A stretch of DNA of 64,000 nucleotides from Alligator mississippiensis (Eukaryota > Chordata > Crocodylia > Alligatoridae), in the NCBI RefSeq assembly GCF_030867095.1, contig NC_081828.1, forward strand, positions 217,465,978 through 217,529,977, written 5' to 3'. The translations under genes were made by a program, and so were the position numbers. Below are positions 7,890 to 61,800 of the stretch, piece after piece. Below the pieces are notes generated by a model. It was not told the origin of the DNA, made no database searches, and worked only from the letters and a program-made list of their open reading frames with translations. Numbering within the stretch: the stretch's first letter is position 1; every line of letters begins with the position of its first letter.

Positions 7890-10800
7890 CTGCAAACAAG
7901 AAACGAGATTGGGAGCAGCTTTCCTGTGGCTGCCGTCACAGCCCCATCGTCCCGAGAGAAAGGCCTGACATGTCAACGATTCAGCTTAGGCTAAAAAGCC
8001 TTTCAAGTCCCTCACTGGCCTGGCTGGAAGGGTTGTGACTGCCAACCGAGGGATCACCCTACAGTCACCAAAGCAGGCACCTTTGCTGGCAGTGGCCTGA
8101 GCAGAGGCCAAGCAGCTAACTGAGTCCTCAATAGTGCTCTGCCCTTCCTGGCCTCCAAACCAGGCCTGGGGTCATCTGAAGAGGTTGCTGAGAGAAGTTC
8201 CTCCATGTTATACCACAGCCATCATCACCTCTGTGCTAGAGGAGCAGCCCAGGCTGTGCTGCAGGTGGTCTCTGCAGAGCCTCAGTCCCCGTTGTCCTAC
8301 CTTCCCCTCCCAGCAGCACGGACTTCATGGCACGTACCTCCCGCAGCAAGTTTGCAGGGTCAGAGCCTTGCTTTGCTCTGGCTGCACCATACCAGGGGAT
8401 CTGAGCCAGCAGGGTGAAGCCTGGAGATCAGCAGAGAGCTGCTATAATGGCTCTTTCCTCTCCCAAAAGGTCACGGCAGGAGGAGGGGATGTCATTACCA
8501 TGCCAGCACACCATTACTGTCAAGGGTACTGAGTAGGACAGCCCAAGGGCTGCTCTACAGGACAGAGCAGTCCTTGCAGGAACCTCTCCAGAGTCTATTG
8601 CAATACAAACCACCCCAGGGCTCTAGCCCTGTGCTGCATGGGAACTTCCTGACTGCCACGTGTCATCCATCAGCAAGAGAAGGGAGCAAACTCTCCCAGG
8701 AGTTACCTGTCCATGGATGTCTTTGCAGTAGCCGGTGGCCAGCCCCTCTGCCCACAGGATGAGGTTGCTCTGGTGACACAGGGCGTTCACGACCAACTCA
8801 TTCTCCGTATCATCCGAGTCCTCCCTGCTGTGCACCAGCACTACGACGTTCCCCTGGAGCAGAGAGTGCCAGAGAGCAGTTAACTCCTGTGCTGACAGCC
8901 ACCTCCAGGTCATGGGAGGAGATAAAGGACCTGCACTCGCACAAACACAGCGTGTCCTAAGTTACCAAGCCCCCTAGCTCCACTGCATCCGCACCAGTCT
9001 GGGTCCTGAATCAGAGAGGTGGGAGAAGAACCAGGTTACATAACACCTCTCCAGCCTAAAAATACATGAAGGTTGTGTTACAAAGCAGCTGCTACCAGCT
9101 GCACTGATCTGTAAGCAGATTCAAAAGCCTCGGAAACACTAAGCAGAGAGCTAGCCCTGTTTGGGGTCAGGAAGGAACTGTACCCCATGGTCAAACTGGC
9201 ACAGACTGGAGGGGATTTCACCTTCCTCTGTAGTGCAGTGTGGCTTCTTCCTGGGATCTCTGGAGCATGTATTAACAACCTTTTATAGAAGCAGGTCACT
9301 GGCTGCTGTGGCCTCCCTGCTTTACCTGTGGCAAGTTCAGGGGCGAAGCCTGGTGTTGTGTCAGGGCTGACTGTGTTGTTTTGCTAAGAGGGTGACAATG
9401 GATTTGTGTGGGATGGTTTGGACAGGGTGATCCTGCCTCTGGAGGTCCCTTCCAGCCAACTTTTCTCTGATTCTGTGAAGAGAGGCACTGCCAGGGGGAT
9501 AGTTCCCATCAGTCATGCTGTGGGAGATGGGGTGGGGAAGGGGGAGTTTTGAACAACCCAATGCTACTTCCAGATCGTGTAAGTCTGCCTCAGCCCACAT
9601 GGACCTGTTCATTAACATATTTTTTGCTGGCTTTTTTCTTTTTTTAATGAAAAGGCCTGATCCAGCTGTAACAGACTCTCCCCCGTTTCCCCAGGGCAGC
9701 CAAGATTGATTATAAAAGCAGTGGGTGCTGATTTTTGCCCACCAGCCTACAGAGCTCCTCTTGTGCTGTTTCACATCCTGCTCTCCCCTCAGTGTCTTGC
9801 CTAGTGAATCCACTTCTTACCCTTAAAGAAACCCCATTCAGGTGCTTGAAGGTCACCCTGTCCCCCACAAGTTTTCCAGTGCCCAAGATCTAGTCTCTTG
9901 CTCTATCCAAGACACTATGGAGAACAGTTCAGTTCAGGCTCCTGTCTGAAGAGCCGGAGACACATAACCGGTATGGCTGAGGTACAGCCAATCCCATGTC
10001 TGACCCTCAAGACCCCACCAACTCTTTGCTTGGGAAAAGAAGAGATGAAAAATATTTCTTTCTTCCATCTGCATAGAGGACATCACTTTACCCCAATAAC
10101 CAGTTATCCCTCAGTGTCCTGGAGCAGGGATGGGGAGACCTCACTTCCCTGGCCACCAAAAAACACCCTGGTGTCATGGAGCACAGGGGATGTTAAACAG
10201 CACAGAGCCACATCTAACAGCCGGAGGCCAACCCCACTCTCGCACCATGGTGATGCTCTGAAATACCTCTAATTCAAATGGGAACTGCAGAAGGAGTTTG
10301 GGCCCATGCCTGAGCTGGAACTGGATCACTATCCCAAAGGGCAAAGCCCGCTCAGCTCATTAGTACCCAACAGCAGGCAGCAGCTCTGCCCCGTGGAGGA
10401 AAAGCAGTGGTTGCTAATCCCAGGCAAAGCAGCGCTGATTGAAGGGAAGAATGCCGCTGAGAAGCAGCCTGGATATTCAACTTCTGTCTGGGCTGGTTTG
10501 GACAGGGCTGACCCTGCCTTAGACAGGGGTTGGACTCAATGACTTCTAGAGGTCCCTTCCAGCCCATCTCTCCGATTCTAATTGTGGGCAGGGGGAGCAG
10601 AGAAGCCCGGCCATACCTTTAGCTGAGAGCACACAGTGGCCCTGCAGTAATGGATGAAATCCAACACATCCACAGGCCTCATGCCCAGGCTGAGCAGGAC
10701 GCTGACATCATCCACGAGCAGCACAGGACACTTCCAGGAATCACTCTCCGAGGGCGTCAGGGATGTGCGGACAAACTCGTACAGGGCTTTCAGGTTAGAG

Positions 10801-49575: not shown

Positions 49576-49907
49576 CGTATTTCAAAAAAAGTCGGGTAAA
49601 AGTACAAAAAAAGTCAGTCGCGTCACAGCAAAGATTTAGAAATCACAGCGGTGGAGCTAACCCGAGCGAGACACAGACAGAGCACAGACCCAACGACCCA
49701 ACGGACACGACGCGCCGGACGAGCGTCTGGATTCTTCTTCGTTTTTGTACGATCATTGTTACGTGGTTGGTTTCCTCTGTACAACATACACCAAAGCATG
49801 CCATGGACCCGGGGGGCTGGGGGGGGGCGGGACGCACGGTTATGAGACACAAGATGGGTACGTGAGGACACGGGATGCGTGTGAGCTCTCCTCCCTCTCC
49901 GTTGCCT

Positions 49908-50069
49908 TCATGTCAAGTTGTTCTGCAGACAGTTCACCTCGGCCTCGTCCGGCTCCCCCTTGCCGCTGTCGTGCTTGGGCGACGTGGAGTTCTGGATGTT
50001 GAAGGACTCCTCTTCCTTCGTGCAGGGCTTCAGCGACTCCTGCAGCTTGTGGGGAGCCGCCGGGTCGTC
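49908..50069 (-). CDS. CSPG5: CSPG5 coding exon 5 (C terminus and stop)
   Basis: Begins DDPAAPHKLQESLKPCTKEE and ends DEAEVNCLQNNLT with TGA at 49910-49908. The acceptor is CCTCCAG. It carries the conserved KEEESFNIQNS block. Confidence 0.95.
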   Translation of the reverse strand, partial: DDPAAPHKLQESLKPCTKEEESFNIQNSTSPKHDSGKGEPDEAEVNCLQNNLT

Positions 50070-53000
50070 CTGGAGGGGAAAATGGGGGGGCCCAGAGGAG
50101 AAAAGGGGCGAGGGAAGGTCAGGAGCAGGCTGTGCTGCAGATGCCCTTCCCCTCCTTGAGAAAGCAGAGGGCGGCGGTACGGGGTAGCAGCAACGCAAGC
50201 GGGCACGGGCGCGGGCGCCGCCTGCCCGGGGGTGACAGCAATGGGTCCAGGGGCGAGGCTGCGGGGTCCCATAACCCACAAAAAGCAGGGGCCTCTCCCC
50301 CCACGTGCTGCGGAGGTCCCCGCCGGTTCACGGGGCGCTCCCCAGCCTTTGCTCCTGCCGTGGGTCTAATGACCACGCATCCCGCCGGCCACCGAGGCCG
50401 TGCAGAGAAGGGCTGGAGCCAGCGACCGTGGATGCAGGGGGCTCGCGGGCAAAGCCCGGGAGACGGCGTCGCTCACCTCCTGGGGGCAGGTAGCCGCAGC
50501 CTCCGATCTGTGCACACCAGAGGAGGCAACTGCAGCGGAGGGAGCTGAGCCCCTTGCCCAAAGCTCGTGCCAGGAGTTTGTGGCAGCCGGGGAGAGAGCC
50601 CAGGAGTCCCGATCCGTTGCCCTGCACCACCCCGGGCAGCGTTTCTGCCTCTGCCCCATGACCGAGCACCCTAGATCTGCTGGGCTGCCCCCTTAAACCA
50701 AAGGGAGATGGTTTAAGCAATGCCCACATCTGCCTTTCAGACCTCCGGCGGCTGGGGAGCAACACCAGCTCGGCTCCGGGAAGTTGGCATTGCAAACCTC
50801 AAGCGGCGCCACCCTCTCGCGGACACAATCGGCTCTGCTCTACTGTGTGTCAGGGGGGCTATACTGCTGGCAGCAGAGGGAGATTCACCTGTAACTCCAA
50901 TAGGGGCCCAGGGCTGGTCATATCAGCTCCTGGGTGACTTCTTTCCTCCTCGTTAAATATAAGAGCTCTTTTTGCCGTTCTGGGGATGCACGGCGCATGG
51001 GAAGGCCAGAACAGGCTGCCGCCATTGTGTCTGACCTCCTGCACGGCACACGCCGGAGACTTGCACCGTGCTCTGCCCGGCGTGGCCATCCCGGGACCGA
51101 CGGCCGCAAGGACGGAGGGGCCTGGGGTCTCCAGGGGCTGCTCAGCCTTGCGCTGGGGTACTGCGTGCCCTGCCCCTGCTCACGGGATGGATATTCCCTG
51201 CGCTGGCCAGGCAGGGGTCCTATCCAGCTGGAGATGCCACCACTCCCCTGGGCAGGCCGTGCCGCCACCTCGCTGGCAACCGAGAGCACAGCCAAATTGG
51301 CAATTCACCCTCCTGCATCGGCCGCACGGTGCTGCTCGGGGCTGCCTGGTCTTCTCCAGACACAGCTGCATCGCGCTGGTCGGGGGTGAAGTGTTCCCTG
51401 TAGACTCCTTCCCTTCTCCTGCGGCAGTGTGCACATGCGCACGCATGTGTATGTGCATATGCACACGCATGCACACACAGGCCTCGAGCACAGCAAGATG
51501 CTGCTGGTGCAGAGAGCTGCCCGCGAGCTGACGGTCACCCCGTCCCCTAGCTGAACCCCTGGATCCGTGCGAGCTCGGCCCCTTGCACCCATAGCTCGCT
51601 CCTGGCCTCCCCTATTGTCACCTACTCAGTCCACCTGTTTGCACTGGACCAGGCTTTTTAGCTGCCTTGCTGTGAAGCCCCGCCATGGTAGCAGCCCTCG
51701 TGCTTCGGGGCTCTCTCTCCTTAGAGCCCCACCCCGGGACTGCACTCAGGTGTAGAGTGGGGTGCACACTGCAAGGGGGAGACCGGTGCCCCTGCTCCTC
51801 TCTCCTCTCCCCGGTGCCCCCAGTCGCCAGCCAGGCGGCGAGCGGCTGACGCTGGACACAGACACACGCAGACAGACACGTGTGCAGGTCCGTGGCCGCC
51901 GGGGCGGGCGGGAGGGCGGGAAGGGGGCGATGCAGAGATGAGCGCAGAGCAGGCGGGCGCCAAGCGGCTGCAGCGCGGATGGGGGCGGCTTTCGACGGCC
52001 CTCGGGGTGACGGGGTCTGCTGGGAGCCCCGCTCCAGAGCTGGGTGCTGCACCCGGGGGCTCGTGCTCACGGCGATCGCATCCGGCGTGACAGCACGGGA
52101 CGACACAGCCATGTACCCTGTCCATCAGAGGGGCCTGATCCCTCCCGGCCCCAGGGGAGCCAGGGGTCCTGCCAGCGCCCCGGGCGATGTCGGAAGCAGC
52201 CCCCGGGGCGGGCGGGGGGGAAGGAAGGGGGCAGCAGGCAGAAGGGGGAGACGTGAAGAAGACGATTACCTGACAGATAATGTTATCATAGTAAGCCAAT
52301 GCACGGGCATGAGGGGAGAGGTTACGGGGGGTGTCGCAAAGTGTCCTTACATTTGGGTGGGAGCCCTCGGCAATGGTGGACAGCGAGAAGTTGTCGTTGT
52401 GCAGCTCCGACGGCGTCCGGTACCTGGCAGACAAAGCGAGGGGGGTCAGTGTCCGCGGCGGTGGCTCCCTGCACCCCCCCGCCGCCCTGCCCGTGCCCAG
52501 GGGGGCTCTGGTCCATGCCCGCTGAGGGACGCTCCTCACACCGGGGATGCCAACCCAGCAACTGGGGACTCCGCCAGCGCAGGGCAAGCCGAGCCGGGGG
52601 TCCTGGTCTTCACAGGGAGCCCCCAGGTCATGGGGAGGGGGATCGCCCGCGCGCTGTGGCTGCTGTCCATGTGAACACAGTGCATGCACACGCCTGCCTT
52701 GCACACACACACACACACACACACACAGAGCAATGCTACCTGCTCTTCCCCTTGCTCTGTATCATGCACACACCCCCCCGACAGCCTGCACGCCTGCGTG
52801 CTCGCTCTCCCTCTCCCTCTCACACATGCACGCACACTTTATGCTGCACACATCTGTGCTTTCTGGCACGCACCGGCCAGCACGCACGGCAGCACCTGCA
52901 CACACGCTATCGTCCCATCAGACTCCCGGGTGTGTGTGCAAATGCGAGTAGAGAGAGGTGCAGGTTGGCTGCTCTAGGTGAGCATGTGTGCACTAGTGTG

Positions 53001-56000
53001 TGTGTGCGAGACACGTGGCCTGTACACGGCAGGGGTCCCGACTACCTCTGGGGGACGAGAGCCCTGGGGTCCTGCTAGTGACTGAGATATCGCCCCCCAC
53101 AAAACCCTCCTCCTCCATCACAACCATGGGGCACAGGCCTGGGAGCCAGGACAGCCTGAGGGCTGAACCCTGCTCCCGAAACGACTCTCTTCCACGACTC
53201 TGCACACGGCACTTCCCTGTGCCTCAGTTTCCCCCATCTGAGAATCTGAGCTGATCCTTAGACCCTGGAGGATGGGAGAAAATCTGGGGCATGTGTGCAC
53301 TGTGTGTACACCATGTGCGTGGACCCCGGGTATATGGGGCATGTGTGTGCCATGTGTGTGAAGCATGTGTGTGTGTGGGGGGGTGTACTATGTGCATGGA
53401 CCTCATGCGCATGGGGCATGTGCCATGTCTGTGAAGCACGTCTGTGTGGGGCATGTGTGCACTGTGTGTCTGAGACACTTGTGCTCTGTATGAGGCATGT
53501 GTGTACCAATTGCACGGACCCCATGTGCTTGGGGCACATGTGCACCATGTGTGTGAAGCATGTGCGCATGGGGCATGTGTGTGCTGTGTGCGTATGAGGC
53601 ATATGCATGCCGTGCACATGGACCCCATGTGCATGGGGCAAGTGTGCCATCTGTGGGAAGTGTGTGCAAGCGGCACGTGTGCACTGTGTGTACGAGACGT
53701 GTGTGCACCGTGTGCATGGGGCACGTGTGTGTGAAGCAGGTGTGTGTGGGACATGTGGGGAAGAATCTGCCGGGCTGCAGGAGGGAAGAGCTAGATGAGC
53801 TGGGCTCTGGGGACCCGGACAGGGGCCTGCTATCCCTGGGGTGTGGGGGCTCCATGGGCAGGCAGGCTGGCAGCGGGGGCCAGATGAGCAGGAAGGCGGT
53901 GGCAGTGCCTCCCTGGGGGCAGGGGGGCGTCATTCACGGCTTGGGAGGCCACCAACGCTCCTGGCTAATAATTGCACTTGGCACTTTGCAAAGAGTCATT
54001 AACGCTCGTTAGGGAGCCGGCCAGCCCGGCCCTGGGGGAGCAGGGATGGAGTTGTGCAGGCCGTTCCAGTGCCGGGGTGCTGCACCCCGTTGCACCGCAG
54101 GCGGGGGCAGCCCCCAGCAGGATGCCCCATCTGCTCCGCTCCCGCAAGGGTGCCCGAGGCAGAGCCCAGCCCTCGGGGTCAGGTGGGCCTAGCGGGGACC
54201 CCGGAGCTGACAGCAATACAGACACGCTAGCGCAGGGGGCTGCCTGGGTTTCTCAGCTCTGCTGGGGCACGGGGGGTAGGAGCTGCCTTGCTGTCGTGAC
54301 TTGGAGCCGGCAGGATTTGGGGTCCTCAATCCTTGGGGCTGTAAGGCTGCCTTTGCCTCTTGGGGACGTGGCGAGGGGCTCCTGGCAGCACGGGTCTCTG
54401 CCCAGGCTATTTGCTGCCGGACATGGGGCGTGCAAAGGGTCCGAGTCCGCTCACGACACCACCGCCCACCTCCCCTCATGGGTTTCCGAAGCCAGAAGAG
54501 ACCGCGGCGAGCCCTGCGTGTGACGGCTCACGTCGCCCAGGCTGGGGACCTGCAGACATCCCGTGATAACCCCCAGCCCCACGCGAGCCGCGGGGACCAA
54601 CAAGCTTGTGTTCACAGAGCTCTTCGAGGTCCCCTCTACACGCTACAGGTATCATGCAATTAACTGGTTAATGGTACAACGACCTTGAGGCCAGGAAAGT
54701 ACCTATCCCACCACAGAAAGCTCCAACCAGCTATAAAGTTAGACCTTAAAAATATGTGCTAACTTTATAGCTGGTTGCTATCAAGCTTCAGTTTGCAAAT
54801 GTAGCGGGGTCTCCCCTGCAGCTGGGAGCCCTGTCAGCTGCCCCTGGGCCCTGGCAGCACATGGATGTGGGTGTTGAGACCCAGGTGGGTCCTGGAGCCG
54901 GGGGTGCAGCTGCCTCCGGGGTGCGTGAAACCCCCAGGCCTGGAGGATCACAGCTGCCGTGCACCGGGGCACCTCCACGGTTGGATGCCCCTCAGCCAAG
55001 GGGGTCTCCCAGGCACGGGAGCTTGTTTCTTGCCGGTGCAAGGGGAGCTGGGGATCAGGTGTGATGGGCTCTAACATGATCCCACAATCGCATCTCCTGC
55101 CAGGCAAGAGCGGATCACACACCAGATCCCATCGTGACTTGACCTGCCCATGTAGAGGGGGCCTAAATCACTAGAAGGACTTCAGGGGAACAATTGCAGG
55201 CTGTCTTTCTAGGAAGCAGAGTCATCCAAAGGCTGAAGATCCCCCTCACTGAAATGCAGCCACCTCTGGGGTGGGACGCAGCAGCGGAAGAACAGACTGC
55301 AACGATCTAGGAAGAAACCCTTGTCCGATGATGCCTGCGGGAGGTGCAGGGGGGCTAAGAGCCCGAGCCGGGATGACGGGGATGCTGGGGCGGACACCCC
55401 CGTGCTCACAAAACGTCTCCCCGAGGCTCGCGAACTGCAGAACCAGCGCCCGCCGCGGAGGATTCCCCTCCAGACAGCGCCGAGCCGCAGGGATCCGAGC
55501 CGACGTCAGGCTGCGAATGCAGCTGCCGCGATGGCAGTGGGCCCAGCCTGGAGTGTCCCCCGCTCGGGGAGCTCCTCCTGCCCGTGACGGCGGAGCCAGG
55601 CCCCGCCGCCCGGGGAAATTTACTGCCTGCTGGAAGCAGAGCGGAGGGACGAGCCCGTTCCGGCTCACGGGTGACGCTGCCCTCTGCTCCGCGCCACGGA
55701 TGCTGTCGTGAATCACGCACCGCCGCTGCCTGGTCCACGGACAACCCTGCGCTGTCTCAGCAGGGCCTGGAGACCCTCTGTGCTGCCTGTCCCAAGGGCC
55801 GCGTGCTGTCCAGCTGCCGCAGCCCACCCCAGAGGTGGACGCATTTCACGAGCAGGGTTTGGCCAAAGCCTGACAAGCCTCTCCGCCGTGCCAGTGCCTG
55901 TTTCCCCCCTATGTCCGCCCTCCAGGACAAGGCAGCCACCGGCTGGGAGCAGAGGGGGCCTGAAACCAACAGGCACGGCCACCCCATCCCTTCTGCTCCT

Positions 56001-59000
56001 TGGGGCAAGCAGGAGGCTTCCCTCCCTCCCTCCCTCCCCGCCGGCCCCGGCTCACTTGGTCTTGCGCAGTTTGTTGTTCTCAGTCTTGAGCAGATAGAGC
56101 TTCTTGGCGAAGAAGACGGTCATCATGAAGAGCAGCAGCACGACGAGGGCGGCCGAGCCCACGGCCACGCACATCACCTGGAAGTCGGTGATGATGGACT
56201 CGCAGCGCATGCCCTTGTGCCAGATGTAGTCCTGGGTGTTGCACCTGCAACGGGACCCCGGCGGGCGGTCAGGGCAAGCCACGGCCCGGCAATGCTCCCC
56301 CATCCCAGCCACTGCCCCGGCCCCGGCCCCGGCCCCGGCCCCGGCCCCGGCCCCGGCCCAGCCCCACGGACCTGCCTGGCCCCAGGTCCTGCCCTGCGGG
56401 ACTGTGCCCGGCTCAGAGCAGGACCCCGGCTGGGCAAGCTGGAGGGTTCCCCCTGGACGGACCGCCCCAGGTACACGGGGGCCATGCCTGCAGCACACAC
56501 GTGTTCTCCTTGTGCACATGGCACGCATCTGCTCCTCTGCATGTGGGGTCCCTGCAACCAGCACGCACATGCCCCATGTATGCAGGGTTTGTGCACACAG
56601 CACATAGCATATATGCTCCCCTTGTGCACAGTCTGCGCCATGCAGCACACGCATGAGCTCTGTGCACATGGGGCCATGTACCGAGCATGTGCATGCCCCG
56701 TACACATAGGGCCCATGTATGCAGTGCACACGTATCTATGTACACATGGTCCACACATACAGCACACACGTGTCCTATGCACACGGAGTCCACGTACATG
56801 GCACACTTGCCCCCCCACAGGCCTCACACACATAGCACACACATGCCCCATGCACGTGGGTCCATGCACATGGTACACACATGCCCCATGCACACATGCT
56901 TCACACACAGCACACAAATGCCCAGTGCACACATGCTTCACACCAATGGCACATGCGTGCCCCATGCACACGGGGTCTATGCATACAGCACACACATGCC
57001 TCATTACATATGCTTTACACACATAGCACTCATGTGCCCCATGCACACAGCACACACATGCCCTCCATGCACACATGCCTCACAAACACAACCTTCACAT
57101 TCCCATGCACACAGGGTCCATGCACATGGCACACATATGCCCATGCACACGGGGTCCATGCACACAGCACATACATGCTTCGCACCCACGTGCCTCATAC
57201 ACATAGCGCGCACATTCCCTATGCACACGGGGTCTGTGCACGTGGCACACACATGCCTCACACTCATGGGCCCACACACACAGCACACGCATGCCCCCAG
57301 CATGCAAAGCTCCCATGGCTGACAGGCCCGCTGCTGTCCTGTGGCACAGGCTGCCAGCGCTGATCCGCGGCATGGGCACATCCCAGCGTGCCATCTCGGT
57401 GGAGCGGCGCTGACCTACTTCCCGCCCCGCTGAGCAGAGCAGAGCAGAGCAGCGCTCTGGGCAGGGCGGGATGGGGAAATCCCTCACCCTGCACCAGCCA
57501 GGGCTCAGGGCACCCGGGATGCAGGGAGCCGGGGCTGGGCATCAGGAAGTCCCCGAGCACCCTGAGAGGAGGAGATGGGTGCACCGAGGCCGGGAGCCTC
57601 TGGAGTCGCTGGGAGGGGGGGGATGGAAAGACAGACGCCCGAGACAGATGCCAGGGTCTGCTCCAGGCCTGAGCTCCTCTCTGGGCATGGGTGTGTGTGT
57701 GTGGGGGGGGGTCCAGCACCCGCTGTCCTGAGCACCCCACCCTGTCCCTGCCCACTCAGGCCTGGAGGAGCACCCCACAGGGGCAGCCAGAGACCGAGGG
57801 GCTGATCCCAGAGCAGAGCCGGCTCCCGCGGCCCCAGCGCGACAGGTGGCTCTGTGGGGTATGCCAATCCCAATGCCAGGTATCCCAATGCCAGGGGGAG
57901 CATGGAGAAGCAAAGGCCCCGTGGGCCAGCGTGGGGCTGGAGGGTGCCTGGCTCTGCTGGGCCAGGGCTCCAGACTGTTGCATCCCCTCCATGGACGCCA
58001 CGGGAGCCCCGTCTGCCCTGGGCGCCAGCCCCGTCCGTCCGTCGGGGTCCATCGCACCGTGATCTGTCTCCCCCCAGGGGCCAACTGGCCTCATTCACTG
58101 GGGAGCACCAGGCTCACTGCTCGAGGGGGTGCGGGCCGGGAGCAGGAGCCCAACACACAGGCGTGCGCACGGACACACATGCATGTATTTGCACAGGCAT
58201 GTGTGTAGGCACATGTGCACACAATCACACCTATGCACGCACAGACAGACACGCACACGTGCACACAGACAGGCATGCAGATGCACTGCACGCACACACA
58301 TACGCACCACAAACATGCAAGCACACACGGGCACACACATGTGCATGTCACACCCATGCACACACATGTACACACACAGGTCTGCAGATGCACCACGCAC
58401 ACACGTGCATGTGCACACACACAGGCACATGCACACACACAGGCAAACACACACACGTGCATACAGCGATAGCTGTGCACATACATGTACACACACATGC
58501 AGGCATGCTCATGCACTACTCCCAAGCTCTCTACACATGCATGCACACATGCACAGCCACGCACACATGTACGTACGTACACACACACACGCATACAGAT
58601 ACGTGCACACAATATGCATGTATATGCACACACATCAAACGTGCTCCCAGGTCATCTCCAGAGCAGCCAGGCCCCCCTGCAGCACCCAGCCTGCAGCCAG
58701 CCCCCGAGCCGCACCTCAGCCCGTCCCACCTGTGCCCTGGGCCTCACCTATGGCCCAGCCCTTCTCTGCCCCTCCTGCAGCCCCAGGGCCCCACGTTCAT
58801 GCAGCATGCAACCAGCACACCCTGCGGGACCCAGGTTCCCCCGTGGGGCTGCACCGTGGTGGCTGGAAGAAACAGCCTGGGGGCACTGGTGCCACCTGGC
58901 CCTGGGGACCCCGCCTCACCCCGAGCTGTTCATCACAAGCAGGGCCCAGGGCCCAGCCACAGACCCACCTGGGTCAGCGCTGCACCTTGGAAAGCCCTGG

Positions 59001-61493
59001 CTGGCTCCCTGCCCCCTTGGGTTTAGCTGGAAAAGCCCCTTCCCCTCCACTGCCCTTCTGATCCTGGGGAGCCCTTAGGGATGGGACTGGCAGGGCAGAG
59101 GTGCGACATGGGGGTGGCCAATCCCCACAGCCCACCTCAGCCCCTGGCCGGTGGGACTTGGGCATTTTGAGGCTGCTAGGAGAGGCAAGACCCTCAGAGG
59201 GACCAGGGGCCAAGCCTTAACGAAGCCTTAATGAGGTGCGAACAGCTGAGAGCGGCCTGCAGCGACTTAGCCGGCTCCCGTCCATGTGGCTGGAGGATGC
59301 TTTGACGGTTGAAGTCAATGGGATCTGGCCATTAGCTGCCCCCTTGACCCACCCGAGGTGTCTTACATCACCCCCGCCACCAGCTCCATCCCTCCAGCCC
59401 TGCTCCCCGACCCTGCTGGGCCCACGTGCCCCCTACCTGCAGAAGGCTCCCAGGCTTTCCACCAGGTAGCATTGGCCCCCGTTGTGGCAGTAGCTGGGGA
59501 AGATGTCGCACACGGACTTGCAGGAGTTGTTGTGCCGCACGTAGCCGCTGCGGCACTCGGTGCCGTTCTCTCCTGCCACGGACGCCGGGCTCAGGTCCTT
59601 GCTGGGGTGCGGCCGGGCGGTGGCACCAGGCCCGGCCACGACGAAGGTCTGCAGCGGGGGCACGACGAAGCGACGGCTGGTGGGTTCGGCCGCCAGGGTC
59701 TTGGGCACGGCCGGGGTGGGTGCCGCACGGCCATTCTCGTCCTCCAAGTCCCTGGCCAGCCCGGCGCCCCCGTCCTCCTCCTCGTCTTCCTCCTCGTCCT
59801 CCTCCGGCTCGTCCAGCTCGTCGTCCTCGCCCTCCTCGTCGCCGTCGGTGTAGAAGGAGGTGGTGGGGTAGAAGTCGGACTCGTCGAAGGGCGTGAAGTC
59901 GTCGTAGAGCTCGTGGAGGGACCAGGACGAGGCCTTGTCGCCCGGCTTCTTGGCCGCACCGGGGCCCCCGGCCGCGAAGTCGTCCAGCCCCTCGGCCCCG
60001 CCGTGGCTGTCCCCGTCGAAGAGGTCGTAGTAGTCGATGTCGATGATCTCGGAGGCCGTCTGCTCCGAGGGCGGTTCGGGGGTCTTGAGGCCAGCGGGGG
60101 CATCGGTGGCTGATGGCAGTGCCTCCGTGGGCAGCCAGGTCACATCGGTGTGGCCCAGCGCGCCCTGAGCCGGAGAGCTGCTGGCCAGCTCCAGCCACAG
60201 CTCCAGCGACTCCTCCTTCTGGGCCGAGCCGGGCGCCAGGCCCGGGGTGCGGGCCCCGGGGGGGGGAGACCCCGGCCCGGCGTCCCCGGCGGCCTCCAGG
60301 AGGAGGTCGGTCTCTGCCGAGTCGGAGCTGAGGCCCGGCGTGGTGGACGGGCGCGTGGTCCCCGTGGTGGGGCGCTGGGTGGGCGCTGAGGCCCTGCCCG
60401 CCGGGTCTCCGCTCCCGGGCTCCTCGGGGCTCTCGGGGGCAGGGGCGGTGCTCTCCAGGGCTCCCTTGGTGGCGTTTAGGTCCAAAACAATAGCCTCCCC
60501 ATCCGCCGGCCACGCCACGCTGGTCACGGCGGCTGAGGCCTCCAAAGCCTCCTCATTGTCCCGAGCTGACAAAGGCTGCGGGGGCCGGGCACCGGGGTCT
60601 CCCGTCCCCTCTGCGCAGCCCGGACACGGCCGGGACGAGTTGCCCGCTCCGCTAATCTCCGCGGGGCCGCGTGGGACCGGGTGGGCTGCTTCGGGGAGGC
60701 CGAGATCAGCAGGTGCCTGTTGCCGAGATGCCTTCGCTTCGGGGGCTGCAGCTGGCACGGGATTCCCCTCCACCCCCGGGGCATCTCCTGGCGGGTGCTG
60801 CCAGCTTCCCCCTGTCCCTGGGGCTTGGTGGGGACCCTGCCGGCCCCCCACCCAGGCCTCGGCGGCGCTGCGGGGCCGTTCGGACGCTGGAGGGGACACA
60901 GGGAAAGAGGCAGCATCAGGCAGCGCGGCAAGGGGGGCGGGGGTAGAGCCCCCACCAGGCCCCGTCTGGGCTGGGCATCCCACTGCCCCCCTCCCATCCC
61001 CAAAGCACCTCCCTGGGCTCGAAGACCCCCCGCCCTGCCCTCCAGGGCTCCCCCAGCCTGGCAAACCGCTGCAACGGAGATGCCTGCCTGCCACGCCTGA
61101 CACGGGGGGTGCCGGCAGCTCCCCGTAGACCCCCCCTTCCTCCCCAGGTGCAGGCTGAGCGCCCCCGCCCCACTCCGGTGGGGGCAGGATGCGCCCCCCC
61201 TGCACGCTGCTGGCTTGCAGAAGCCAAAGGCTGGCGGTGGGGGGCAGCATGCGTACACCCACCCCCCCAGCACCCCTTAAAACCCGGGGGTGCGGGTACT
61301 GTGCACCCCCCGCACCTGGGCATGCACCCCGTGCATGCACCCCTTGCACCCCCCGCACCCGGGCACGCACCCCGCACGCGGGCATGCACCCCTTGCACCC
61401 CGGGCACGTACCGGGCGCGGCCCCCGGGAGCGCGGCGAGCGCCAGCAGCAGCAGCAGGCGGGGCAGGGCTCCCCCGCGGGCCCCGCTCCCCAT
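49908..61493 (-). CDS. CSPG5: Chondroitin sulfate proteoglycan 5 (neuroglycan C/CALEB), five coding exons
   Basis: CSPG5 is a neural type I transmembrane proteoglycan with an EGF-like module, linked to neurite and synapse development. Coding exons in transcript order are 61493-61412, 60886-59437, 56244-56056, 52423-52270 and 50069-49908. They sum to 2037 bp, or 678 aa, with all junctions AG/GT and in phase. Residues 1-28 form a leucine-rich signal peptide. A long low-complexity acidic ectodomain follows, with a GSG site in the context EEPGSGD that suits chondroitin sulfate attachment, the family block DDFTPFDESDFYPTTSFY and a Glu/Asp run. The EGF-like module spans C487-C525 with six Cys. The membrane helix is about 533-557. 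The cytoplasmic tail includes YRTPSELHNDNFSLSTIAEG and ends NCLQNNLT. The start has G at -3 and +4 and an in-frame TGA three codons upstream. It is longer than human (about 565 aa from memory), mostly in the ectodomain. Confidence 0.95.
52270..52423 (-). CDS. CSPG5: CSPG5 coding exon 4 (cytoplasmic tail)
   Basis: Reads YRTPSELHNDNFSLSTIAEG, SHPNVRTLCDTPRNLSPHAR and ALAYYDNIICQ, closely matching the mammalian tail. The acceptor is TGCCAG and the donor CAG before GTAATC. Confidence 0.95.
52697..52727. repeat. (CA)n microsatellite
   Basis: About 15 uninterrupted AC units upstream of CSPG5 exon 4 in transcript terms, in intron 3. Confidence 0.9.
53285..53760. repeat. Minisatellite in CSPG5 intron 3, GT-rich on the plus strand
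   Basis: Imperfect units such as GACCCCATGTGCATGGGGCA followed by GTGTGTGAAGCATGTGTG. The same unit occurs inverted in intron 2 at 56495-57300. Confidence 0.85.
54725..54776. repeat. Perfect 18-bp inverted repeat
   Basis: AACCAGCTATAAAGTTAG at 54725-54742 and its exact reverse complement at 54759-54776, separated by 16 AT-rich bases, in CSPG5 intron 3. Confidence 0.9.
56056..56244 (-). CDS. CSPG5: CSPG5 coding exon 3 (end of EGF module and membrane helix)
   Basis: Completes Arg-511, then CNTQDYIWHKGMRCES with EGF cysteines five and six. The membrane segment MCVAVGSAALVVLLLFMMTV and the basic juxtamembrane stretch FFAKKLYLLKTENNK follow. The acceptor is GTTGCAG and the donor AA before GTGAGC. 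Length is 189 bp with matching end phases, so skipping would preserve the frame and remove the membrane anchor. Confidence 0.95.
56315..56356 (-). repeat. (GGGGCC)7 hexanucleotide repeat in CSPG5 intron 2
   Basis: Seven perfect CCCCGG units on the plus strand, which read as GGGGCC on the CSPG5 sense strand. They end about 70 bases upstream of the exon 3 acceptor. Confidence 0.95.
56495..57310. repeat. Minisatellite in CSPG5 intron 2, CA-rich on the plus strand
   Basis: Many units like CACACATGCCCCATGCACAC followed by GGGGTCCATG. This is the reverse complement of the intron 3 array at 53285-53760. Confidence 0.85.
58155..58640. repeat. CA-rich minisatellite in CSPG5 intron 2
   Basis: Variants of GCACACACATGTGCACACA. 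Looser than the array at 56495-57310 and without its GCCCCATG core. Confidence 0.8.
59437..60886 (-). CDS. CSPG5: CSPG5 coding exon 2 (ectodomain and most of the EGF module)
   Basis: A 1450-bp GC-rich exon. The acceptor is CCTCCAG after a C/T-rich tract, and the donor is TGCAG before GTAGGG. It encodes the Pro/Ala/Gly-rich acidic ectodomain, the block DDFTPFDESDFYPTTSFY, an Asp/Glu run and the first four EGF cysteines, ending GAFC plus two bases of Arg. The 5' boundary is less certain than the 3' one because this part is poorly conserved. Confidence 0.88.
61412..61493 (-). CDS. CSPG5: CSPG5 coding exon 1 (signal peptide)
   Basis: Encodes MGSGARGGALPRLLLLLALA and ALPGAAP plus one base, then a GTACGT donor. 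The open frame runs on into intron 1 as a Cys/Gly-rich stretch, but that part has no CSPG5 character. An in-frame TGA three codons upstream of the ATG fixes the start. Confidence 0.85.
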
Positions 61494-61800
61494 CGCGGCT
61501 CAGGGCGGCAGCTGCTGCATGGGGCCGGCTCGGCGCAGCCCCAGCCCCATCCCCGCGCCCGCCCGCCCGCCCGCACCGCCCGGCCGGCCGGCCCGCCCCG
61601 CCCGCAGCCCGCCCGCACGTCGGGCTGACGCGCCCGGCCGGCCGCGGGAGGAGGAGGAGGAGGAGACGGAGGCGGGGGCCGGCGCGCTCCAGCTGTTCCA
61701 GCTGTTCCAGCTGCGGCCGCAGCCAGCCCGCGCTGCGCTGGCACCGCAGGAGGGAGCGGGGTCTGGCCCAGGGGTGCCACGGGGGACGGAGCTGGCTTGA
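61494..61800 (-). promoter_or_regulatory. CSPG5 CpG-island promoter region
   Basis: Very GC- and CpG-rich sequence directly upstream of the CSPG5 start, with no TATA box seen. Three CAGCTG E-boxes sit at 61690, 61699 and 61708 with 9-bp spacing. The transcription start itself cannot be placed from sequence. Confidence 0.55.

What the first reader, a model, noticed from the sequence alone, without database searches (positions are those of the whole stretch)
52270..57310. Oppositely oriented copies of one minisatellite flank the CSPG5 transmembrane exon
The arrays at 53285-53760 (intron 3) and 56495-57310 (intron 2) share a unit around GACCCCATGTGCATGGGGCA, but in opposite orientation. In the pre-mRNA they are complementary and bracket exon 3 (56056-56244), which encodes the end of the EGF module and the membrane helix and can be skipped in frame. 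Complementary flanking introns are known to promote exon circularisation or looping out in animals. A circular RNA, or a soluble CSPG5 lacking its anchor, is inferred. I know of no report for this gene.
Basis: partly seen in the sequence, partly recalled or inferred. Interest (0 to 1): 0.7.

Follow-up and report, generated by a model that had tools for sequence, protein, structure and literature searches.

The report
Inverted minisatellite pair around CSPG5 exon
Two mirror-image copies of one short DNA repeat really do sit on either side of the CSPG5 exon that anchors the protein in the membrane, and their RNA could pair strongly, but nothing shows that this changes how the gene is spliced, and features of the gene argue against it.

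Summary
CSPG5 lies on the minus strand, exon 3 is 56056-56244 (189 nt, phase 2-2), and array A (intron 3, 53285-53760) and array B (intron 2, ~56480-57310) are diverged inverted copies of one minisatellite (unit roughly 39 nt). Inverted alignment scores 200 against 42 +/- 5.7 for 60 shuffles. In the held 2.35-Gb genome each array's only detected relative is the other. At equilibrium the RNA pairs A with B: 378 bp in the 7.2-kb fold, none when A is flipped.

The functional inference is not supported. Arm A lies 2.3 kb from the exon donor; B is transcribed first and folds well on itself; intron GC is ~63%, whereas mammalian circRNA genes are mostly GC-poor (PMC8516420); 1 of 24 other 10-kb stretches of this contig holds a stronger inverted pair. 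Skipping exon 3 would be in frame but would remove two of six EGF cysteines, unlike the known shed ectodomain. Searches found no CSPG5 circle.

Most likely: a locus-private inverted minisatellite pair, able to form intronic dsRNA in unspliced transcripts, with little effect on splicing. A low-level exon 3 circle is not excluded.

The parts
53285..53760 (-). Array A: diverged minisatellite in CSPG5 intron 3, TG-rich on the + strand
   Evidence: genome search with 53270-53770 finds only itself and, inverted, array B
56480..57310 (-). Array B: the same minisatellite in CSPG5 intron 2, opposite orientation, CA-rich on the + strand
   Evidence: genome search with 56827-57057 finds only B and, inverted, A
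56056..56244 (-). CSPG5 exon 3, 189 nt: last two cysteines of the EGF module, membrane helix, start of the cytoplasmic tail
   Evidence: cysteine assignment and helix read from the sequence
59437..60470 (-). CSPG5 exon 2, 3' part only (5' limit not determined): chondroitin sulphate attachment region, acidic stretch, first four cysteines of the EGF module
52270..52423 (-). CSPG5 exon 4 with two donors: short form ends at 52351, long form at 52270 (27 more residues)
   Evidence: an alternate-donor event of human CSPG5 exon 4 is listed in PMC8393481 (passage)
58150..58650 (-). Array D: CA-rich array in intron 2, same strand sense as B, complementary to A by composition only
   Evidence: shuffled A pairs with D in the long fold
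52640..52990 (-). Stretch E: CA-rich sequence in intron 3, a possible nearer competitor for A
   Evidence: co-fold gain with A -45 kcal/mol
56314..56359 (-). (GGGGCC)~7.7 on the sense strand, ~70 nt upstream of the exon 3 acceptor

Best explanation
A and B are locus-private, inverted copies of one diverged minisatellite in the introns on either side of CSPG5 exon 3 (shown, within the limits of the genome search). In an unspliced transcript the two arms can form a long imperfect duplex that loops out exon 3 (shown in silico, at equilibrium only). Most likely (inferred) the duplex forms in only a minor, late fraction of transcripts: B is made ~2.7 kb before A and can fold on itself, and intron 2 can be spliced meanwhile, so exon 3 is normally included. 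The pair is then a by-product of minisatellite spread in a GC-rich region 3.4 Mb from a contig end, at most an intronic dsRNA substrate for editing.
For: Homology A-B z ~28 by shuffles. Co-fold gain -230.5 kcal/mol against -9.5 and -13.7 when one arm is flipped, and -87 to -101 for 5 shuffled pairs. In the 7169-nt fold 378 A:B pairs form; MFE -3725.5, against -3522.7 when all spans over 2000 nt are forbidden. With A flipped, or with 3 shuffles of A, no A:B pairs form. Partition function of the 4.06-kb core: 379 of 476 A nucleotides pair with B. Flanks of A and B unrelated in 3 of 4 comparisons; the fourth is marginal (26, 95% shuffle value 24). Against an effect on splicing: B alone folds at -420.5 kcal/mol; A is 2295 nt from the donor; GC is 63-64% in the two 4-kb bins 52001-60000.
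Against: The equilibrium pairing is strong, well beyond shuffled arms. A:B is the best inverted pair of the six 10-kb window pieces tested, and only 1 of 24 other stretches (L025) scored above it, with L023 close (150 against 156). Arm B is close to the acceptor (235 nt). Neural genes often make circles (general knowledge). No RNA data were available to show that exon 3 is constitutively included, and co-transcriptional folding was not modelled.
Confidence: 0.62

Rival explanations
1. Back-splicing: A:B pairing brings the exon 3 donor near its acceptor and yields a 189-nt exon 3 circle at detectable level in neural tissue.
For: Right topology; strong predicted pairing; B 235 nt from the acceptor. 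Inverted arms flanking a circularised exon have a precedent in mouse Sry (PMC4479058, passages).
Against: Arm A is 2.3 kb away, while matches at known circles are enriched within 500 nt (PMC8938519). The region is GC-rich and the gene short, with about five coding exons as located here, against the low-GC, long, exon-rich profile of circRNA genes (PMC8516420). The longest uninterrupted A:B helix is 20 bp including G-U pairs. B can self-fold first. No CSPG5 circle in the listings.
Confidence: 0.2
2. Exon skipping: looping-out of exon 3 yields an in-frame, anchorless CSPG5.
For: Phase 2-2 exon; the skipped frame stays open. Inverted Alu pairs can shift a neighbouring exon from constitutive to alternative (PMC2533698, passages).
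Against: The product loses two of six EGF cysteines with the membrane helix, so it is probably misfolded (inference). A soluble ectodomain is already made by cleavage (PMC2592529). In the Alu minigene the pair lay in one intron with one arm 24 nt from the exon; for 61 edited Alus whose nearer partner was in another intron the mean distance was 1993 bp, against 2.7 kb here. The CSPG5 event listed in a glioblastoma splicing survey is an alternate donor of exon 4, not skipping of exon 3 (PMC8393481, passage; only prognostic events are shown there).
Confidence: 0.08
3. The effect is on DNA, not RNA: alternating purine-pyrimidine arrays (Z-DNA prone) or inverted repeats that can recombine and flip the segment carrying exon 3.
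For: Alternating steps 0.74 in A and 0.73 in B against 0.46 for the window; inverted arms 2.7 kb apart.
Against: Identity is only ~69-72% and the longest exact match is 21 nt, poor for homologous recombination. Arrays C and D are more alternating (0.84, 0.83). Exon 3 is in the normal orientation.
Confidence: 0.07

Closest known systems
Reverse complementary matches (RCMs) flanking circularised exons, e.g. inverted Alu pairs
   Same: Complementary arms in the two introns beside one exon, with pairing predicted
   Different: Arms are a locus-private minisatellite, not a dispersed transposon; one arm is 2.3 kb from the exon; no circle has been seen
Mouse Sry inverted repeats and circular transcript (PMC4479058, introduction passage)
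   Same: Long inverted arms flank an exon
   Different: Sry's inverted sequence is given as ~15 kb; here 0.5-0.8 kb at ~70% identity, and no circle is shown
Intronic inverted Alus shifting an exon to alternative splicing (PMC2533698, passages)
   Same: Intronic inverted repeats near an exon that could be skipped
   Different: There the pair is within one intron with one arm 24 nt from the exon, tested by minigene
CSPG5 ectodomain cleavage (PMC2592529, passages)
   Same: Gives a soluble CSPG5
   Different: Proteolytic; the cleaved ectodomain is said to contain the EGF-like domain; needs no splicing change

Membership tests
Exon-flanking RCM pair | Reverse-complementary sequences in both introns beside the exon | tested here: met
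Exon-flanking RCM pair | Arms pair with each other rather than locally | tested here: met
   At equilibrium only; B still keeps 234 of 831 nucleotides paired within itself; co-transcriptional folding not tested
Exon-flanking RCM pair | Arms lie close (about 500 nt) to the splice sites that would be joined | tested here: not met
   B 235 nt upstream (met), A 2295 nt downstream (not met); yardstick from PMC8938519, an enrichment rather than a strict rule
Exon-flanking RCM pair | Back-spliced product exists | not testable with these tools
   No RNA-seq available
Minisatellite | Head-to-tail units of 10-100 nt, array B | tested here: met
   TRF: period 38, 5.9 copies, 66% matches, and longer periods 73-115; spacings of 37-39 recur
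Minisatellite | Head-to-tail units of 10-100 nt, array A | tested here: inconclusive
   TRF calls only 53661-53729 (period 24, 2.9 copies); spacings of 39 recur among irregular ones; membership rests on homology to B
Dispersed transposable element | Multiple copies in the genome | tested here: not met
   Only A and B found in 2.35 Gb; that search skips very common words and scores only best candidates, so its negatives are limited

The most novel reading that the evidence does not exclude
A private inverted minisatellite pair, not a transposon pair, drives back-splicing or regulated skipping of the CSPG5 membrane-anchor exon at biologically relevant levels in this lineage's brain, with the pairing limited by the self-folding of arm B.
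Probability: 0.13. Interest if true: 0.6.

Novelty: new member of a known kind. Interest (0 to 1): 0.3.

Why it matters
If the pair were functional, it would show that a tandem repeat that spread in inverted orientation can create a lineage-specific circular RNA or splice switch without transposons, in a synaptic proteoglycan. As it stands it is a clean natural test case: one exon, two arms, no other detected relatives of the arms in the genome.

Tried and rejected
Chance complementarity of CA/TG-rich sequence: rejected by shuffles and by comparison with three other CA-rich stretches. A dispersed repeat family: rejected within the limits of the genome search. Segmental inverted duplication including flanks: no flank homology beyond one marginal comparison of four. 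A known RNA family in the gene: none at gathering threshold in 49800-61600. Are A and B one family, or an ancestor and a copy: 100-nt windows of A match B better than the rest of A in 12 of 19, and windows of B match A better than the rest of B in 12 of 37, so one mixed family with no clear direction. Literature on tandem repeats beside circles, minisatellites and splicing, and circles in alligator brain (the last on an untested guess at the animal group) gave listings only, none used as evidence beyond the papers cited.

Not done: comparison with related species (no relatives are held for this genome), any RNA evidence, co-transcriptional folding, splice-site scoring, and genome-wide counts of the GGGGCC tract, the intron 3 hairpin and array D (the search machine did not answer).

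Full report
Setting. The window is C5:217465978-217529977 of an unnamed 2.35-Gb genome in 195 contigs; contig C5 is 220.9 Mb long, so the locus is ~3.4 Mb from its end. CSPG5 lies on the minus strand. Exons were located from splice sites and translation: exon 2 ends at 59437 (its 5' limit was not determined), exon 3 is 56244-56056, exon 4 runs from 52423 to 52351 (short) or 52270 (long), and exon 5 starts at 50069. Pfam confirms the family; it did not report an EGF domain, which is read from the cysteine pattern and from literature on the protein. Intron 2 is 3192 nt and intron 3 is 3632 nt.

The arrays. A (53285-53760) and B (~56480-57310) share a diverged unit of roughly 39 nt; the period is clearer in B than in A. 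Inverted Smith-Waterman alignment scores 200, against a mean of 42 (sd 5.7, max 57) in 60 dinucleotide shuffles; the direct orientation scores 32 against 28. Three other CA-rich stretches match A inverted at z -0.4 (C), 0.3 (D) and 2.9 (E); B matches D in direct orientation at z 3.4, within the shuffle maximum. BLAST gives 69% identity over 437 columns. Genome searches with 231 nt of B and with all of A returned only A and B, inverted to each other; that tool skips very common words and scores only the best candidates, so rarity is likely but not proven. Flanks show no homology except one marginal score (26 against a 95% shuffle value of 24, one of four comparisons).

RNA pairing. Co-folding B with A gains 230.5 kcal/mol over separate folds; flipping one arm cuts this to 9.5 or 13.7, and five shuffled A and B pairs gain 87-101. 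D with A gains 88, about what shuffled arms gain, so generic CA/TG complementarity may explain that pair but not A:B. In the fold of 7169 nt from the end of exon 2 to exon 4, 378 pairs join A and B, and forbidding all spans above 2000 nt costs 203 kcal/mol. With A flipped no A:B pair remains and the MFE is -3632.0, only 93.5 weaker than the real -3725.5, because flipped A folds better on itself (-221.0 against -144.2). In three shuffles of A no A:B pair remains either, A goes partly to D, and the MFE is -3580 to -3594. In the partition function of the 4.06-kb core, 379 of 476 A nucleotides pair with B, and the innermost confident pair is 56566:53757. The duplex is imperfect: 48 helices, longest 20 bp with G-U pairs counted, longest exact match 21 nt.

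Base rate. Among 24 other 10-kb stretches of the same contig (20 nearby, 4 spread), one BLAST procedure looking for inverted arms 150-4000 nt apart found a score above that of A:B (156) in one, L025 (359), and 150 in L023; 17 of the 24 had no hit. Of the window's own first 60 kb in six pieces, A:B was the best, the next 108. L025's pair gains 342 or 304 kcal/mol depending on strand, more than A:B; L023's gains 131 or 129. TRF found no tandem repeats in L025 or L023; the L025 arms look like an inverted LINE pair (recalled, not tested). So inverted arms of this strength are uncommon but not exceptional here; what is unusual is that they are a private minisatellite. The sample is small and comes from one contig.

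Why a splicing effect is doubtful. (1) Geometry: B is 235 nt from the acceptor but A is 2295 nt from the donor; at ADAR-regulated circles, matches are enriched within 500 nt of the back-splice junction (PMC8938519, passages seen). (2) Order of synthesis: B is transcribed ~2.7 kb before A and alone folds at -420.5 kcal/mol, so intron 2 may be removed first (inference; not modelled). (3) Composition: 63-64% GC over 52001-60000, while PMC8516420 (passages seen) places 82-94% of circRNA parental genes of five mammals in its GC-low groups and finds low GC the consistent predictor of circle hotspots. (4) Protein: skipping exon 3 is in frame but by my reading leaves four of the six EGF cysteines. PMC2592529 (passages seen) describes cleavage that already gives an ectodomain containing the EGF-like domain, and its mouse isoforms differ at exon 1 and by an extra exon 5, not by loss of the membrane exon.

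Literature. Searches of the held open-access library for CSPG5 with 'circular RNA' (6 papers) and with 'circRNA' (4 papers; 7 different papers in all) gave no title or listed abstract start about a CSPG5 circle. Two of the seven were checked by their CSPG5 passages: one names it as a gene regulated by miR-150 (PMC9803679), one as a protein of extracellular vesicles (PMC10340215); the other five were seen as listings. CSPG5 with 'exon skipping' gave 4 papers, all checked by CSPG5 passages (one of them is PMC10340215 again): none describes skipping of the membrane exon. One lists an alternate-donor event of human CSPG5 exon 4 (PMC8393481), which fits the two exon 4 donors found here; one reports changed major transcript usage of CSPG5 without saying in the passage seen which transcript (PMC9089920). 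'Circular RNA' with 'minisatellite' gave 16 papers, 15 listed, none with a title about this mechanism. This is absence from those searches, not proof of absence from print.

Verdict. The anatomical observation is right and non-random. The mechanism is possible but unproven and, on the features that could be tested, less likely than a neutral outcome.

Noticed in passing
56314-56359: Sense-strand (GGGGCC)~7.7, the same hexamer as the human C9orf72 repeat (recalled), ~70 nt upstream of the exon 3 acceptor; the only exact tract of 4 or more units in the 304 kb examined.
   Followed up: partly
54724-54777: Perfect 19-bp stem hairpin in an AT-rich island of intron 3, folding well on both strands (z -6.2 and -4.7); a small transposon remnant or microRNA-like hairpin. 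No Rfam match at gathering threshold.
   Followed up: partly
52270-52350: Alternative donor of exon 4 adds 27 residues (VRTLCDTP...NIICQ) before exon 5. Best Pfam stretches of the two scanned short forms cover profile positions 1-40 and 67-120, leaving 26 uncovered, which fits such an insert; the long form was not scanned. A human exon 4 alternate-donor event is listed in PMC8393481.
   Followed up: partly
1-36000 versus 36001-64000: CpG observed/expected is 0.18-0.31 in 4-kb bins of the first 36 kb and 0.49-0.65 after it.
   Followed up: no
58150-58650: Large CA-rich array in intron 2, about 83% alternating purine-pyrimidine steps, not clearly related to A or B beyond composition.
   Followed up: partly
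55250-55294 and 55804-55848: 45-nt inverted repeat, 80% complementary, in intron 3 between exon 3 and array A.
   Followed up: no
L025:6755-7443 and 9319-9999: Inverted pair stronger than A:B in a nearby stretch; not tandem, probably a LINE pair (recalled).
   Followed up: partly
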